Source of the DNA: Prolixibacteraceae bacterium
GTDB taxonomy: Bacteria; Bacteroidota; Bacteroidia; Bacteroidales; Prolixibacteraceae
Direction: 5' to 3'
Assembly (NCBI GenBank): GCA_009773765.1
Contig: WTWZ01000011.1
Location: 1 to 43,770 of the forward strand
DNA length: 43,770 bases
The notes below the pieces were generated by a model. It had not been told where the DNA came from. It saw only the letters and a program-made list of their open reading frames with translations, and searched no databases. Positions 22,075 through 30,671 of this stretch are shown piece after piece; the first letter of the stretch is position 1; every line of letters begins with the position of its first letter. Made by a program: the position numbers and the translations under genes.

Positions 22075-23262
22075 CTATTCACCAATCCCAATCAAATCAA
22101 AAATAAAGGCATATTCCAGAGCTGTATCTTTTATCCACTGAAACCTGCCGGAAGCGCCGCCATGTCCGTAATCCATGTTGATGTGAAAAATCAGCAGATT
22201 ATTGTCGGTTTTTAACTCACGGAGTTTGGCCACCCATTTTGCCGGCTCCCAGTATTGTACCTGCGAATCGTGCAGTCCCGTGGTAACAAGTAATGCAGGA
22301 TAATCTTTAGCAACCACATTGTCGTATGGAGAGTATGACTTCATATAATAGTAAAATTTATCTTCTTTCGGGTTTCCCCATTCATCGAACTCCCCTGTGG
22401 TAAGCGGAATACTTTCGTCGAGCATTGTTGTAATCACGTCAACAAACGGAACAGCGGCAACCACTCCTTTGTAAAGTTCGGGTTTCAGATTAATGCAGGC
22501 ACCCATTAAAAGTCCGCCAGCGCTTCCTCCTTTGGCAAACAATTTTTCAGGATTAGTATATTTTTTATCTATTAAATGCTGTGCGCAGTCGTTAAAATCG
22601 GTAAAAGTGTTCATTTTTTTAAGCAGCTTCCCATCTTCGTACCATTGGCGGCCATTAATTTGTCCACCCCTGATATGTGCAATAGCGTAAACAAACCCAC
22701 GGTCTATCAAAGGTAAAATTGAAAGCCTGAAACTGGGGTCTATGGTGGCGCCGTAAGAGCCGTAACCATAAATCAACGCCGGATTGTTTCCATTTTTCTT
22801 CAGGCCTTTCCTGTACACCAGCGACATCGGTATTTTTGTCCCATCGCCGGCAATAGCATAAATCCGGTGTGTTTCGTAATTATTTTTATCAAACCCGCCT
22901 AACACTTCTTCCTGCTTGAGTAGTTTGCGTTTTTTGGTTATCATGTTAAAATCGAAAATTGAATTTGGCGTTGTCAGCGATGTGTAGCTAAAACGAAATA
23001 TTTCGGTATCGAATTCGAGGTTTACATTTGAATACGCGGAATAAACTTCTTCTTCAAAATCAATATAATACCCGCCGCTGCCTTGCCAGGGTATTATCCG
23101 TAATTGCCTGATTCCCTCTTTTCGTTCTGATACCACAAGATAATCCCTGAAAATATCGATGTTGTCAAAATAAACATCGTTGCGATGAGGAATAACAATA
23201 ACTTTAAAAAGAACTTTTGGGTTAACGCCAAATGAAGAACCCTGTTTGAAAATAACCTTAAT
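22075..23262 (-). pseudogene. 5'-truncated prolyl oligopeptidase / oligopeptidase B (S9A) gene
   Basis: The frame encodes a complete S9 catalytic alpha/beta-hydrolase domain: nucleophile in AKGGSAGGLLMGA, Asp in LVTTGLHDSQVQYWEPAKW and His in NMDYGHGGASGRF. Full-length S9A enzymes have about 680-710 residues; here only about 395 are open. The frame has no ATG before the body of the domain: it runs back from GTG 23136 through IPHRNDVYFDNIDIFRDYL, still recognisable oligopeptidase sequence, to a stop at 23263-23265 inside the end of serA. The N-terminal beta-propeller half is missing, so a deletion or recombination probably joined serA to the 3' half. The catalytic residues are intact, so activity as a short hydrolase from a non-ATG start cannot be excluded. 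Confidence 0.75.
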
Positions 23263-24175
23263 TCACTTTGTAAGTGGTTATCCCATCTTCAAAAAAATCG
23301 ACAATTTGCCCTGCGGCGGCAACTCCGGCGTTAAGGTTGGCTTCTTCGGTTTGCGCGCCTGCTTTTTTCGGGGTAAAGAAAAAACGGCCTGCAAATTTTT
23401 CAGAAAACAAATCCATGCAATCCGGCGCAACATCCGAAATATATTTAATACCGGGCTTCTCTTCCATAACCCTCACTAAATCGGGTTCGTTAATTACCTC
23501 CTTCCGTGCGGTGTTTACCAAAATGCTTCCATCTTTTAAATGTTTCAGTACTTCGTAACTTACTGATTTAATATGCTCGCCCTTTGCCGGAACATGGATT
23601 GAAATTACATCGCTTTTTTCGTAAAGCTGTTCAAGCGAATGCACCACTTTTAACCCGATTGCAGCAGCGGCATCTTTACTGAAACGCGTGTAAACAATTA
23701 CTTTCATCCCCAAAGCTCGCGCAATCCTGAAAACATTTCGGGCCACAAAACCAAAGCCATGTAAACCGAGCGTTCGGCCGCGCAGTTCGCCGCCAATTTT
23801 TCCGCTGAAAAATTCGCGTATGCCATAAATAGCCAAACCAACTGCAAGTTCAGCCACAGCATTGGCATTTTGCCCGGGAGTGTTCATAACCACAATTCCT
23901 TTTTGGCTGGCTGCTTCTAAATTAATATTGTCATAGCCTGCGCCGGCACGCACGACAATTTTCAGGTTTTTGGCAGCGCTGATTACATCGGCGTCAATAA
24001 TATCGCTTCTCACAATCATGGCATCCGCACCCTTAACTGCACCGAGCAACTCCTGTTTCGATTTGTATTTTTCCAAAAGTTTCAGGGTGTATCCCGCTTT
24101 TCTGAAAACTTTTCCTATTTTATGAATTGCATTGGATGCAAAGGGTTTATCAGTAGCTATTAAAACTGTTTTCAT
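23258..24175 (-). CDS. serA: D-3-phosphoglycerate dehydrogenase (Bacteroidetes short type)
   Basis: This 305-residue D-2-hydroxyacid dehydrogenase catalyses the first step of serine synthesis, oxidising 3-phosphoglycerate with NAD+. Visible are the substrate-domain VRAGAGYDNINLEAA, the Rossmann loop TLGLHGFGFVARNVFRIA, VNTARKEVINEPDL with the substrate Arg, and FTPKKAGAQTEEANLNAG. The usual catalytic His (TPH) is Lys at about residue 270. From memory this is shared by Bacteroides-type and Entamoeba enzymes. There is no ACT domain, so feedback control by serine through that route is not expected. It lies downstream of serC, separated by a hairpin with a T-run. Confidence 0.88.
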   Translation of the reverse strand: MKTVLIATDKPFASNAIHKIGKVFRKAGYTLKLLEKYKSKQELLGAVKGADAMIVRSDIIDADVISAAKNLKIVVRAGAGYDNINLEAASQKGIVVMNTPGQNANAVAELAVGLAIYGIREFFSGKIGGELRGRTLGLHGFGFVARNVFRIARALGMKVIVYTRFSKDAAAAIGLKVVHSLEQLYEKSDVISIHVPAKGEHIKSVSYEVLKHLKDGSILVNTARKEVINEPDLVRVMEEKPGIKYISDVAPDCMDLFSEKFAGRFFFTPKKAGAQTEEANLNAGVAAAGQIVDFFEDGITTYKVN

Positions 24176-24190
24176 ACTATTTTTGATTTC

Positions 24191-24222
24191 AAAAAAAATG
24201 CAGGATTTTCACCCTGCATTTT
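24191..24222 (-). terminator. Intrinsic terminator or attenuator between serC and serA
   Basis: On the minus strand a stem AAAATGCAGG with its complement, broken by one mismatch and closed by a short A-rich loop, is followed by eight T residues. It lies between the serC stop (24228) and the serA start (24175). It can end serC transcripts or reduce serA levels. Confidence 0.7.
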
Positions 24223-24227
24223 CCTGG

Positions 24228-25298
24228 TTATTTTGTCGATTCAAATTCCTGCATTGTTTTTACGAGCGCTTTTACGCTTTCAACAGGCATTGCGTTGTAA
24301 AGTGACGCCCTGAACCCGCCAACCGAACGGTGTCCTTTCAACCCAATCATTCCCTGCGATTCGGCAAATACATCGAACTCTTTTTCGTACTGTGCATATT
24401 CAGGCGTTAAAACGAAAGTGACATTCATGCGCGAGCGATCTTCCTTGTTGGGGACTGTTGCCTGGAACATTTTGTTGCGGTCAATTTCGCCGTATAAAAT
24501 TTTGGCCTTTTCTATATTGGTTTTCTCCATCGCCTCCAGACCACCATTGGCTTTCAGCCAGCGTAGTGTTAATAAACAGCCAAATACTGATACGGTAGCC
24601 GGTGTATTAAACATCGATTCGTTATCGATGTGAGTTTTGTAATCGAGTATTGTTGGGATTGGCCTTGAAGTTTTGCCCAAAGCTTCGTTTTTAACAATTA
24701 TCAGTGTAGCGCCCGATGGTCCTAAGTTTTTCTGGGCACCGGCATAAATTAAATTGTATTTTGAAACATCCATCGGTCGGCTTAAAATATCCGACGACAT
24801 ATCGGCCAGCATTGGAACCGGCACATCAAGGTCGGTCAGGATTTCTGTCCCAAAAATGGTATTATTTGATGTAATGTGCAGAAAATCAACATCGTCCGGC
24901 ACACTGAAACCTTTGGGAATATAATTAAAATTGGCATCTTTCGACGATGCAACTTCAACCACTTCGCCAATCATTTTTGCTTCTTTCATGGCTTTGCTTG
25001 CCCACATTCCTGTATTCAGGTATGCTGCTTTTTTAACGAGCAGATTATACGGGGCCATTAAAAACTGAAGGCTTGCCCCCCCCTGCAGAAAAAGCACCGA
25101 GTACCCTTCGGGGACTTTCAGCAATTCTTTTACCAAAGCCTGAGCTTCTTCCATAACTGCCACAAACTCTTTGCTGCGGTGCGAAATTTCCATTACCGAA
25201 AGTCCGGTTCCTGCAAAATCGATTATTGCTTCGGCAGTCTGTTGAATTGTAAACTGGGGCAAAATGGACGGCCCTGCATAAAAATTATGTTTTTTCAT
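24228..25298 (-). CDS. serC: Phosphoserine aminotransferase
   Basis: The 356-residue PLP enzyme converts 3-phosphohydroxypyruvate and glutamate to phosphoserine (second step of serine synthesis; the family also acts in pyridoxal phosphate synthesis). It opens with [20 protein letters not shown], typical of SerC, has the cofactor lysine in [20 protein letters not shown] and ends with the conserved [27 protein letters not shown]. Length and ends match the family, so the gene is complete. serA follows on the same strand. A TATCTTTG element at 25432-25439 on the minus strand could be its promoter -7 box, but no good -33 box stands at the right distance. Confidence 0.95.
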
Positions 25299-25528
25299 TA
25301 TTACAATTATTAAAGGTTATTTATTATTGCCTGTTCGCCGTAATTCTGTTAAATATCGGTAATTTAATAATTTAAACCACTGGAATTTACTATTGTCCGG
25401 TTTAATTTTATTTTCAGATATTTAATGTCGTCAAAGATAAATGACTTAAACAATTCTCCTATTGATTTTAGGAATAATATGTTTTTAAACTTGTTTTTTT
25501 ACAGAAAAGTAACTTTAAAATCCAGTCA

Positions 25529-25567
25529 TAAAAAATGCCACCCTAAAAAAATCAGGGCAGCATTTAT
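25529..25567 (-). terminator. Intrinsic terminator of gcvT
   Basis: Downstream of the gcvT stop codon the minus strand folds as AAATGC-TG-CCCT, an A/T-rich loop, then AGGG-TG-GCATTT and a T-run. The stem is interrupted by one two-base internal loop. Its position after gcvT and before serC fits transcription termination. Confidence 0.65.
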
Positions 25568-25589
25568 ATCTGTAAGACAAAAATCTGCA

Positions 25590-26672
25590 TCAAATAAACG
25601 GCACCCTCACTACTTCAGCAGGAATGGCTTTATTTCTGATTTTCACAAAAACCTGTGTTCCAAAGGCTGAATATTCCTTGGCAATGTAACCCATCCCGAT
25701 TCCCTTGTTGAGTGTTGGCGACATGGTTCCCGAGGTTACCTGGCCAATCACATTTCCCTCAGAGTTTACAAGCTCGTAGCCATGACGGGGGATACCCCGT
25801 TCGAGCATCACAAAACCGCGTAACTGGCGGGTAACGCCTTCTGTTTTTTGCATCATTAAAAATTCCCGGCCGATAAATTTCCGGTCATTGTTAAACTTGG
25901 TAATCCAGCCCAGTCCGGCTTCAATGGGCGAAGTGGTGTCGTCAATATCGTGTCCGTACAGGCAGTAGCCCATTTCGAGGCGGAGTGTGTCACGGGCTGC
26001 CAAACCAATGGGTTTAATCCCAAATTCGCCTCCGGCTTCAAAAATTGCATTCCACATTTGTCCTGCCGCTTCATTGCGGAAATACAATTCGAAACCGCCG
26101 GCCCCTGTGTATCCTGTGGCTGAAATAATAACATCGTCAACCCCGGCCATTTTGCCGGTAACGAAGGTGTAAAACTTAATTTCCGACAAATTTATATGTG
26201 TGAGTTTCTGCAGTGTAGCTGTTGCTTTTGGCCCCTGCACTGCCAACTGGCTGATACGGTCCGAAGCATTTTCAATTTCTGCCCCAACACTATTGTGGCT
26301 TACCACCCAGTCCAGGTCTTTTTCAATATTAGCTGCATTAACAACCAGCATATATTTTTCGGGCTGATAATAATACACAAGCAAGTCGTCAACAATTCCG
26401 CCTTTTCCATTGGGAAAACAGGTATATTGAGCTTGCCCTGGCAATAAAACAGTTGGGTCGTTTGATGTTAATTTTTTAACCAGTTCGAGTGCGCTGGGGC
26501 CTTTCACCCAAAACTCGCCCATGTGCGATACATCGAAAACACCAACGGAATTGCGCACGGTAGTGTGCTCGTCAATTATCCCGGAATATTCGATGGGCAT
26601 TTCGTATCCTGCAAATTCAAGCATTTTTGCCCCTAATATTTTATGTTGTCCGTTAAACGCTGTAACCTTCAT
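25590..26672 (-). CDS. gcvT: Glycine cleavage system T protein (aminomethyltransferase)
   Basis: The 360-residue enzyme transfers the methylene unit from the aminomethyl-lipoyl H protein to tetrahydrofolate, releasing ammonia. Family hallmarks are [16 protein letters not shown], the folate-binding [12 protein letters not shown] with the catalytic Asp, [38 protein letters not shown] and the C-terminal [21 protein letters not shown]. It is full length. No gcvH or gcvP lies next to it. It is transcribed from a well-formed promoter at 26694-26724 and ends at a hairpin near 25550. Its neighbourhood with serC and serA links serine and glycine one-carbon metabolism. Confidence 0.95.
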
Positions 26673-30126: not shown

Positions 30127-30671
30127 AACCGCTAATTTTAAATTTAATAGTTCAAAAAGCAAACCATAACCAATTGAAAGACAATATGTCAAAATAAAAA
30201 ATGAATTTAATGAAAATACGTCTGAAAAAAGAGAATTTGGGTGAAAAGCTGACAGTAACAAAAAAAACAAGGATGAAATTCACCCCTGTTTTCCAAATCT
30301 TACCAAACTTATCTCTATGAAAAAACTCTGCTACAAAATTTTATAATACAAATGTAGTTCAATAAAGAGTTAACACATCTGAATCAAAGTTAAAGAAAGT
30401 TAAGAGTTAATATTCAATATGATATACCAGCAGGACCTCAGTTTTACATCTTCCAAAATCTATATATTTGCAATCCGTTTTTTTAAAAAAATCAATTAAA
30501 TAAATGTTGCTTGTGCTTGGTGTTTACCTGCAAATTTAAATAAATGTTACTTGTGCTTAATGTTAACCTTCAAATTCAGGTTGCATTTTATTTCTAAAAA
30601 AATTGAGTTACTTTAGCACCCCGAAAAAAGAAATATATTTTTTAATTTATATAACTAAAAATTAAATGTTT
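30127..30671. promoter_or_regulatory. Divergent intergenic region clpB / ppdK
   Basis: About 540 AT-rich bases. For ppdK, TATATTTG at 30463-30470 matches the Bacteroidetes -7 consensus; only a weak TTTT (30442-30445) stands near the -33 position. For clpB, TACATTTG on the minus strand (30356-30349) is a possible -7 box without a good partner. A 40-base tandem repeat lies between the ppdK promoter candidate and its start codon. Confidence 0.4.
30496..30575 (+). repeat. Two-copy 40-base tandem repeat in the ppdK leader
   Basis: Units 30496-30535 and 30536-30575 share 35 of 40 positions, including TTAAATAAATGTT, CTTGTGCTT and CAAAT. They lie downstream of the candidate -7 box, so they would be part of the untranslated leader of pyruvate phosphate dikinase. 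They may be regulator binding sites or RNA elements. Confidence 0.75.

What the first reader, a model, noticed from the sequence alone, without database searches (positions are those of the whole stretch)
24191..24222. Terminator-like hairpin between serC and serA
The two genes act in consecutive steps and are co-directional, but a stem followed by eight T residues separates them. Either serA has its own promoter inside serC, or the hairpin sets a serC:serA ratio.
Basis: seen in the sequence. Interest (0 to 1): 0.25.

Follow-up and report, generated by a model that had tools for sequence, protein, structure and literature searches.

The report
Transcription-stop hairpin between two serine genes
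Between two neighbouring serine-making genes of a Draconibacterium-like bacterium sits a short RNA hairpin of the ordinary kind that makes RNA polymerase stop; most close relatives examined have one there, so it probably lets only part of the transcripts continue into the second gene, a known way of setting gene ratios.

Summary
The hairpin is real. On the minus strand, the serC/serA sense strand, AAAATGCAGGGT-GAAA-ATCCTGCATTTTTTTT starts 5 nt after the serC stop and ends 15 nt before the serA ATG; it folds at -18.1 kcal/mol (z -4.7). In the near-relative clade 34 of 36 distinct serC-serA gaps hold a terminator-like hairpin, 29 of the 34 with GCAGG in the stem. Other co-directional gaps of 40-79 nt in samples of two genomes carry one in 2 of 55 cases. 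Base pairs co-vary. Outside the clade many serC-serA pairs are tight and have none. One near relative (L003 = L086) keeps the hairpin after serC although serA is not next to it, so it is first of all serC's terminator. Best reading: an ordinary intrinsic terminator inside the pair that lets part of the polymerases through to serA. Read-through is not shown. The rival, a full stop with a serA promoter inside serC, has no support from a promoter scan or synonymous-site conservation, but those tests are weak. A new instance of a known kind; the mild oddity is that stem letters are kept better than in two neighbouring terminators.

The parts
24228..25298 (-). serC, phosphoserine transaminase, 356 aa, stop TAA at 24230-24228
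   Evidence: NCBIfam NF003764 and TIGR01364 above cut-off
24191..24225 (-). intrinsic-terminator-like hairpin: up to 15 pairs with wobbles, GAAA tetraloop 24210-24207, core GCAGG 24217-24213 with CCTGC 24204-24200, T-run 24198-24191
   Evidence: kept in relatives; covarying pairs
24176..24190 (-). 15-nt spacer from the T-run to the serA start; too short for a complete promoter downstream of the hairpin
23258..24175 (-). serA, D-3-phosphoglycerate dehydrogenase type, 305 aa
   Evidence: best hit TIGR01327 PGDH 172 bits (cut-off 454, not reached), Pfam 2-Hacid_dh and 2-Hacid_dh_C above cut-off; next to serC in the near relatives except L003/L086

Best explanation
The hairpin is an ordinary intrinsic (Rho-independent) terminator at the 3' end of serC, inside the serC-serA pair. 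RNA polymerase leaving serC makes the hairpin and the U-run; a share of polymerases stops there, giving serC-only mRNA with a stable 3' end, and the rest read through and make serC-serA mRNA. The effect would be serC mRNA at or above serA mRNA. Shown: the hairpin, its position, its conservation, co-variation and replacement by other hairpins. Inferred: that it terminates, that termination is partial, and that serA depends on read-through.
For: Stable hairpin plus U-run on the sense strand. Terminator-like hairpin in 34 of 36 distinct serC-serA gaps of the near clade, a clade with SH-aLRT support 98 on a quick serC tree. With the background detector the clade scores 31 of 36 against 2 of 55 (gap 40-79, the window's own case left out) and 6 of 60 (gap 80-159) co-directional gaps in samples of two genomes. 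On 34 distinct aligned GCAG-type hairpins 432 of 442 cells pair (97.7%), 4 of 13 pairs change on both sides, slid controls fall to 43-60%. L008, L009 and L018 have another stem with a T-run in the same place. The core is slightly weaker than that of the gcvT terminator in the same genomes, median -13.5 against -16.1 kcal/mol, 25 paired rows, Wilcoxon p 0.037, not corrected for kinship. Only 15 nt separate T-run and serA ATG.
Against: No RNA data. The near relative L003/L086 (two records with the same sequence after serC) has the hairpin right after serC although no serA follows; its genome G023 has only distant relatives of this SerA, best 32% identity. So the hairpin does not need serA to be kept, which also fits a full terminator. 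The strength difference from gcvT is small and is absent against the terminator of the DUF1015-type gene (11 pairs, p 0.46). With about -13 kcal/mol and six to eight U it could stop nearly all polymerases. In the other serC clade 26 of 48 rows were labelled as having no such hairpin, 24 of them at gaps of 37 nt or less. L020, inside the near clade, has overlapping stop and start and no hairpin.
Confidence: 0.52

Rival explanations
1. The hairpin is a full terminator of serC, and serA is transcribed from its own promoter lying inside the serC coding region (in some relatives, in the longer gap).
For: Stem and U-run are in the range of the terminators downstream of gcvT and the DUF1015-type gene in the same genomes. 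The hairpin is present after serC where serA is not adjacent (L003/L086). Some relatives have 51-107 nt between hairpin core and serA, room for a promoter there.
Against: Recalled Bacteroidetes consensus TTTG-N(18-22)-TAnnTTTG: 0 sites with 9 or more of 10 matches in 24151-25720, against 1.2 on average in 100 shuffles. Synonymous conservation is not raised at the serC 3' end over 32 sequences, the window's included. Both tests are weak: no strong site ahead of serC is found either.
Confidence: 0.27
2. The hairpin mainly protects or defines the serC mRNA 3' end after cleavage of a serC-serA transcript, so that differential mRNA stability and not termination sets the ratio.
For: Such a hairpin could block 3' exonucleases. 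Its letters are kept more than those of neighbouring terminators: GCAGG in 23 of 25 rows against 8 of 25 for the commonest 5-mer of the gcvT hairpin, which could reflect recognition of the stem.
Against: The U-run is kept along with the stem (columns 30-31 invariant, 32, 34 and 35 at least 90%) and the replacement hairpins of L008, L009 and L018 also have T-rich tails (the detector demands one), which points to termination.
Confidence: 0.12
3. Chance palindrome or inherited relic with no role.
For: Tight serC-serA pairs without it exist outside the clade.
Against: Kept with co-varying pairs over species whose SerC proteins are about 74-85% identical to the window's; rare in comparable gaps.
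Confidence: 0.03
4. A member of a dispersed repeat family or part of a riboswitch or leader attenuator.
For: A perfect inverted repeat; some relatives have a second hairpin after it.
Against: In the own genome one other place matches the stem with up to 3 mismatches, a hairpin in the convergent gap after a SusD-like gene (name recalled), and one other place matches GCAGG-N(4-9)-CCTGCNTTT, inside an ORF. No Rfam match at gathering scores in the window; 8 matches far below gathering scores in 24000-24400.
Confidence: 0.03

Closest known systems
Internal intrinsic terminators of ABC importer operons in Ruminiclostridium cellulolyticum (PMC9045158; abstract and section list seen)
   Same: Stem-loop between an upstream gene and its operon partners that stops part of the transcripts and so sets their ratio
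   Different: Other genes and organism; termination was studied by experiment there, not here. The abstract reports a lower U content in internal terminators, whereas this one has eight T
Read-through at termination sites in E. coli operons (PMC6131387; abstract and section list seen)
   Same: 40% of termination sites have read-through, giving operon variants (abstract)
   Different: Genome-wide transcript data in another phylum; whether serC or serA is treated was not looked up
arsC-arsD hairpin of the Bacillus sp. CDB3 ars1 operon (PMC4562236; start of abstract in a search listing only)
   Same: Hairpin from inverted repeats between two operon genes lowers expression of the full operon
   Different: Different genes and organism; shown by experiment there

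Membership tests
Intrinsic (Rho-independent) terminator | Stable stem-loop with G+C-containing stem | tested here: met
   -18.1 kcal/mol, z -4.7; 13 pairs, 4 G-C
Intrinsic (Rho-independent) terminator | U-run directly after the stem on the same strand | tested here: met
   Eight T at 24198-24191, partly able to pair with the A-run; kept in relatives
Intrinsic (Rho-independent) terminator | Transcripts end in the U-run | not testable with these tools
   no RNA data
Intra-operon partial terminator | Lies between co-directional genes of one pathway with a short gap | tested here: met
   serC-serA gap 52 nt
Intra-operon partial terminator | Kept at this place across relatives more than in comparable gaps | tested here: met
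   31 of 36 near-clade rows against 2 of 55 and 6 of 60 background gaps with one detector; 34 of 36 with the other
Intra-operon partial terminator | Kept because of the downstream partner gene | tested here: inconclusive
   L003/L086 has the hairpin without an adjacent serA: one lineage, against
Intra-operon partial terminator | Genes are co-transcribed and part of the polymerases read through | not testable with these tools
   no RNA data; no promoter signal found for serA, weak test
Riboswitch or leader attenuator | Match to a known family, or a structured leader upstream | tested here: not met
   no Rfam match at gathering scores; the sequence upstream is serC coding sequence
Dispersed palindromic repeat | Many similar copies in the genome | tested here: not met
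   one other place each

The most novel reading that the evidence does not exclude
The GCAGG stem is kept more strictly than neighbouring terminators because something reads it: the serC hairpin would be a regulated stop, or the stable 3' end of a small RNA cut from serC mRNA, by which the cell adjusts serA, the first enzyme of serine synthesis, to serine supply. That one lineage has the hairpin without an adjacent serA fits the small-RNA form of this idea as well as a plain terminator.
Probability: 0.1. Interest if true: 0.5.

Novelty: new member of a known kind. Interest (0 to 1): 0.25.

Why it matters
It is a conserved, testable case of a terminator kept inside a two-gene biosynthetic pair in Bacteroidota; of the 20 papers listed (of 144) by the one search that named a Bacteroides species with termination terms, no title is on termination in that phylum. 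If read-through is partial, a serC:serA ratio is built in; if not, serA must have a promoter inside serC. Either way 'serC-serA operon' should not be taken to mean equal expression.

Tried and rejected
Rfam over the whole window (0 matches at gathering scores) and over 24000-24400 at E up to 10 (8 matches, all far below gathering scores) gave nothing. Dispersed-repeat idea: rejected. DNA-operator idea: spacers between the half sites vary (6 in L002, 12 in L011, counted by eye) and the only other copies found in the genome lie in a convergent gap and inside an ORF, so not pursued. Ribosome-coupled read-through (the serC stop lies 5 nt before the hairpin): possible here, but the distance from stop to hairpin core ranges from 4 to 32 nt in 34 rows, so not a general rule. 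The start-site element CTAAATTTTATGAG and the loop GTTTTCAAGTT of some relatives are not genome-wide families: in three genomes matches are at the level of the reversed-pattern control. Paper searches: among the rows listed (20 of 47, 1 of 1, 20 of 144, 20 of 75, 10 of 4,834) no title or abstract start deals with a serC-serA hairpin in Bacteroidota. A crude comparison of stem letters (mean identity 0.61 serC against 0.49 gcvT, 24 rows; bootstrap difference 0.006-0.233) was replaced by the 5-mer count. In one search rows L012 and L103 were labelled as lacking the GCAG hairpin by too strict a pattern, though both have it, so its change counts are slightly too high; the labels of 20 rows were set by hand.

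Full report
What is there. On the minus strand, serC (25298-24228, 356 aa) is followed after 52 nt by serA (24175-23258, 305 aa). The gap holds AAAATGCAGGGT-GAAA-ATCCTGCA followed by eight T. The stretch 24185-24232 folds at -18.1 kcal/mol on the sense strand, with 0 of 200 shuffles as good (z -4.7); the other strand gives -13.0 with 2 of 200. The built-in scan lists the hairpin only on the plus strand. The first four T can pair with four A, so the stem may be read as short with eight U or long with fewer.

Conservation. 80 genome loci and 29 relatives' loci (L083-L111) were checked for a serA downstream of serC. Fourteen of these 109 loci gave no serA hit and were left out of the gap counts; they are read below. 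Identical gaps were collapsed, and with the window's own 84 distinct serC-serA gaps remained. On a quick maximum-likelihood tree of the 84 SerC proteins the window falls in a clade of 36 (SH-aLRT 98). There a detector that scores stem energy and T-run finds a terminator-like hairpin in 34 of 36 gaps; 29 of the 34 have GCAGG in it, 26 both GCAGG and CCTGC. The five without GCAGG are L005 and L087, with GCAG variants, and L008, L009 and L018, with another stem. The two without a detected terminator are L014, which folds into a hairpin that did not pass, and L020, whose serC stop and serA start overlap. In the other 48 rows 9 were labelled GCAG-type, 13 another hairpin, and 26 none, 24 of the 26 at gaps of 37 nt or less (labels partly set by hand).

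Wider look. Stretches downstream of serC in 60 further genomes were read: 27 and 33 of the 70 other genomes with a match. In 25 of 60 a serA-like gene of 45% or more identity follows; 9 of the 25 gaps are 34 nt or less, the other 16 (61-456 nt) hold hairpins of various kinds or none and were not counted. Of the 4 same-genus genomes among them, 3 (L161, L162, L164) have the GCAGG hairpin and one (L163) has a 326-nt gap without it. L162 repeats the gap of L019.

serC without serA. Of the 14 loci without a serA hit, 12 (serC 68-71% identical) have a gene beginning MA-[IV]-LKPF at once after serC, at 1-3 nt, and no room for a hairpin; by its start it is the DUF1015-type gene that follows serA elsewhere (by eye). 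The other two, L003 and L086, are near relatives (78%) with the same sequence after serC. They carry a hairpin of the same type, AAAAATGCAGGATTGTTTCTGCATTTTTTT, right after serC, but the next co-directional ORF is a 259-aa protein that looks like a methionine aminopeptidase (recalled, not searched), about 165 nt downstream. That genome (G023) has only distant relatives of this SerA, best 32% identity. So in one lineage the hairpin outlasts, or does not need, a serA neighbour. This counts against a pure ratio device and for a plain serC terminator.

Background. A simple gene finder (ATG-started ORFs of 100 aa or more, greedy) was run over 20 stretches of the window's genome plus the window, and over 20 stretches of G006. 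Co-directional gaps of 40-79 nt with a terminator: 2 of 24 and 1 of 32; one of the 2 is the finding itself, so 2 of 55 without it. Gaps of 80-159 nt: 1 of 25 and 5 of 35. With this detector the near clade scores 31 of 36 and all 84 rows 49 of 84. So a hairpin here is unusual for such gaps.

Structure under selection. On 34 distinct aligned 40-nt hairpins, 432 of 442 cells form a standard pair. Five of 13 pairs never vary or depart, 4 vary on one side, 4 change on both sides. Shuffled partners give 91.3%, slid partners 43 to 60%. The alignment holds 35 of the 39 pattern hits; the four of other length were left out (L004, L011, L034 and L205, the last not a serC hairpin). The hits were picked by a GCAG pattern, so the invariance of those letters is partly by construction; the figure not tied to the pattern is 29 of 34.

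Letters kept more than in neighbouring terminators. In the same genomes the hairpin after gcvT shares its commonest 5-mer in 8 of 25 rows and that after the DUF1015-type gene in 6 of 11, against 23 of 25 and 10 of 11 for the serC hairpin. The control is small and the rows are related. It suggests, without showing it, a constraint on the stem beyond pairing.

Strength. Median core energy is -13.5 kcal/mol for serC (34 rows) and -16.1 for gcvT (26 rows); 25 paired rows differ at p 0.037, not corrected for kinship. Against the DUF1015-type gene (11 pairs) p is 0.46. Mean T-run score is 3.46 for serC, 3.91 for gcvT and 3.58 for the DUF1015-type gene. This fits a slightly leaky stop but does not prove one.

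A serA promoter? From the T-run to the serA ATG is 15 nt, so a promoter must lie within or before the hairpin. The recalled Bacteroidetes consensus has no match of 9 or 10 of 10 in 24151-25720; 100 shuffles average 1.2. Over 32 serC sequences, the window's included, synonymous conservation is not raised at the 3' end. Both tests are weak: the scan also finds no strong site in the region ahead of serC.

Reading. An intrinsic terminator at the end of serC, most likely partial because serA follows at 15 nt with no promoter signal, is the plainest account (0.52); a full terminator with a serA promoter inside serC is the main rival (0.27). Co-transcription and read-through are inferred. It would work like the internal terminators of PMC9045158 (abstract and section list) and the leaky sites of PMC6131387 (abstract and section list). 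Membership in 'intrinsic terminator' is met on sequence features only; transcript ends are not testable here.

Verdict. Real, conserved, functionally plausible and ordinary in kind. Interest 0.25.

Noticed in passing
window 22075-23257 (-): Directly after serA lies an S9 peptidase ORF matching only the C-terminal half of oligopeptidase B (profile positions 330-675 of 686), so 5'-truncated. In 15 of 18 relatives' loci listed a 416-aa protein (DUF1015-type, name recalled, not searched) follows serA, in L015 after one small ORF; L009 ends too soon, L022 and L051 do not show it. In the window's genome that gene (84% identity) lies on another contig, G000:C42.
   Followed up: partly
L006, L017, L019, L021, L088, L092, L093, L102, L104, L107, L111, L164 (serC-serA gap): A second small hairpin between the terminator and serA with changing stem and a constant TCAAGTT in the loop, about 17-20 nt (by eye) ahead of a constant TTTATGAG; 4 of 7 predicted pairs change on both sides in 10 of these 12 rows that were aligned (L102 and L107 left out as copies or near copies). 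L016, L090, L096 and L098 lack it as if cleanly deleted (by eye). Not a genome-wide repeat in three genomes.
   Followed up: partly
window 25530-25566 (-): The upstream gene gcvT (26672-25590) ends in its own terminator-like hairpin, ATGCTGCCCTGATTTTTTTAGGGTGGCAT plus T-run, -16.9 kcal/mol, so serC is probably not read mainly from gcvT.
   Followed up: partly
window 30262-30294 (-): A 15-pair terminator-like hairpin at the listed TTG start of the clpB-like ORF (gene name recalled): a leader hairpin or the end of the upstream gene.
   Followed up: no
L023, L024, L025, L027, L028, L030, L031, L038, L040, L041, L042, L066: In these relatives serC is followed at 1-3 nt by the DUF1015-type gene, with no serA between (by eye): serA is gained, lost or moved between serC and that gene.
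   Followed up: no
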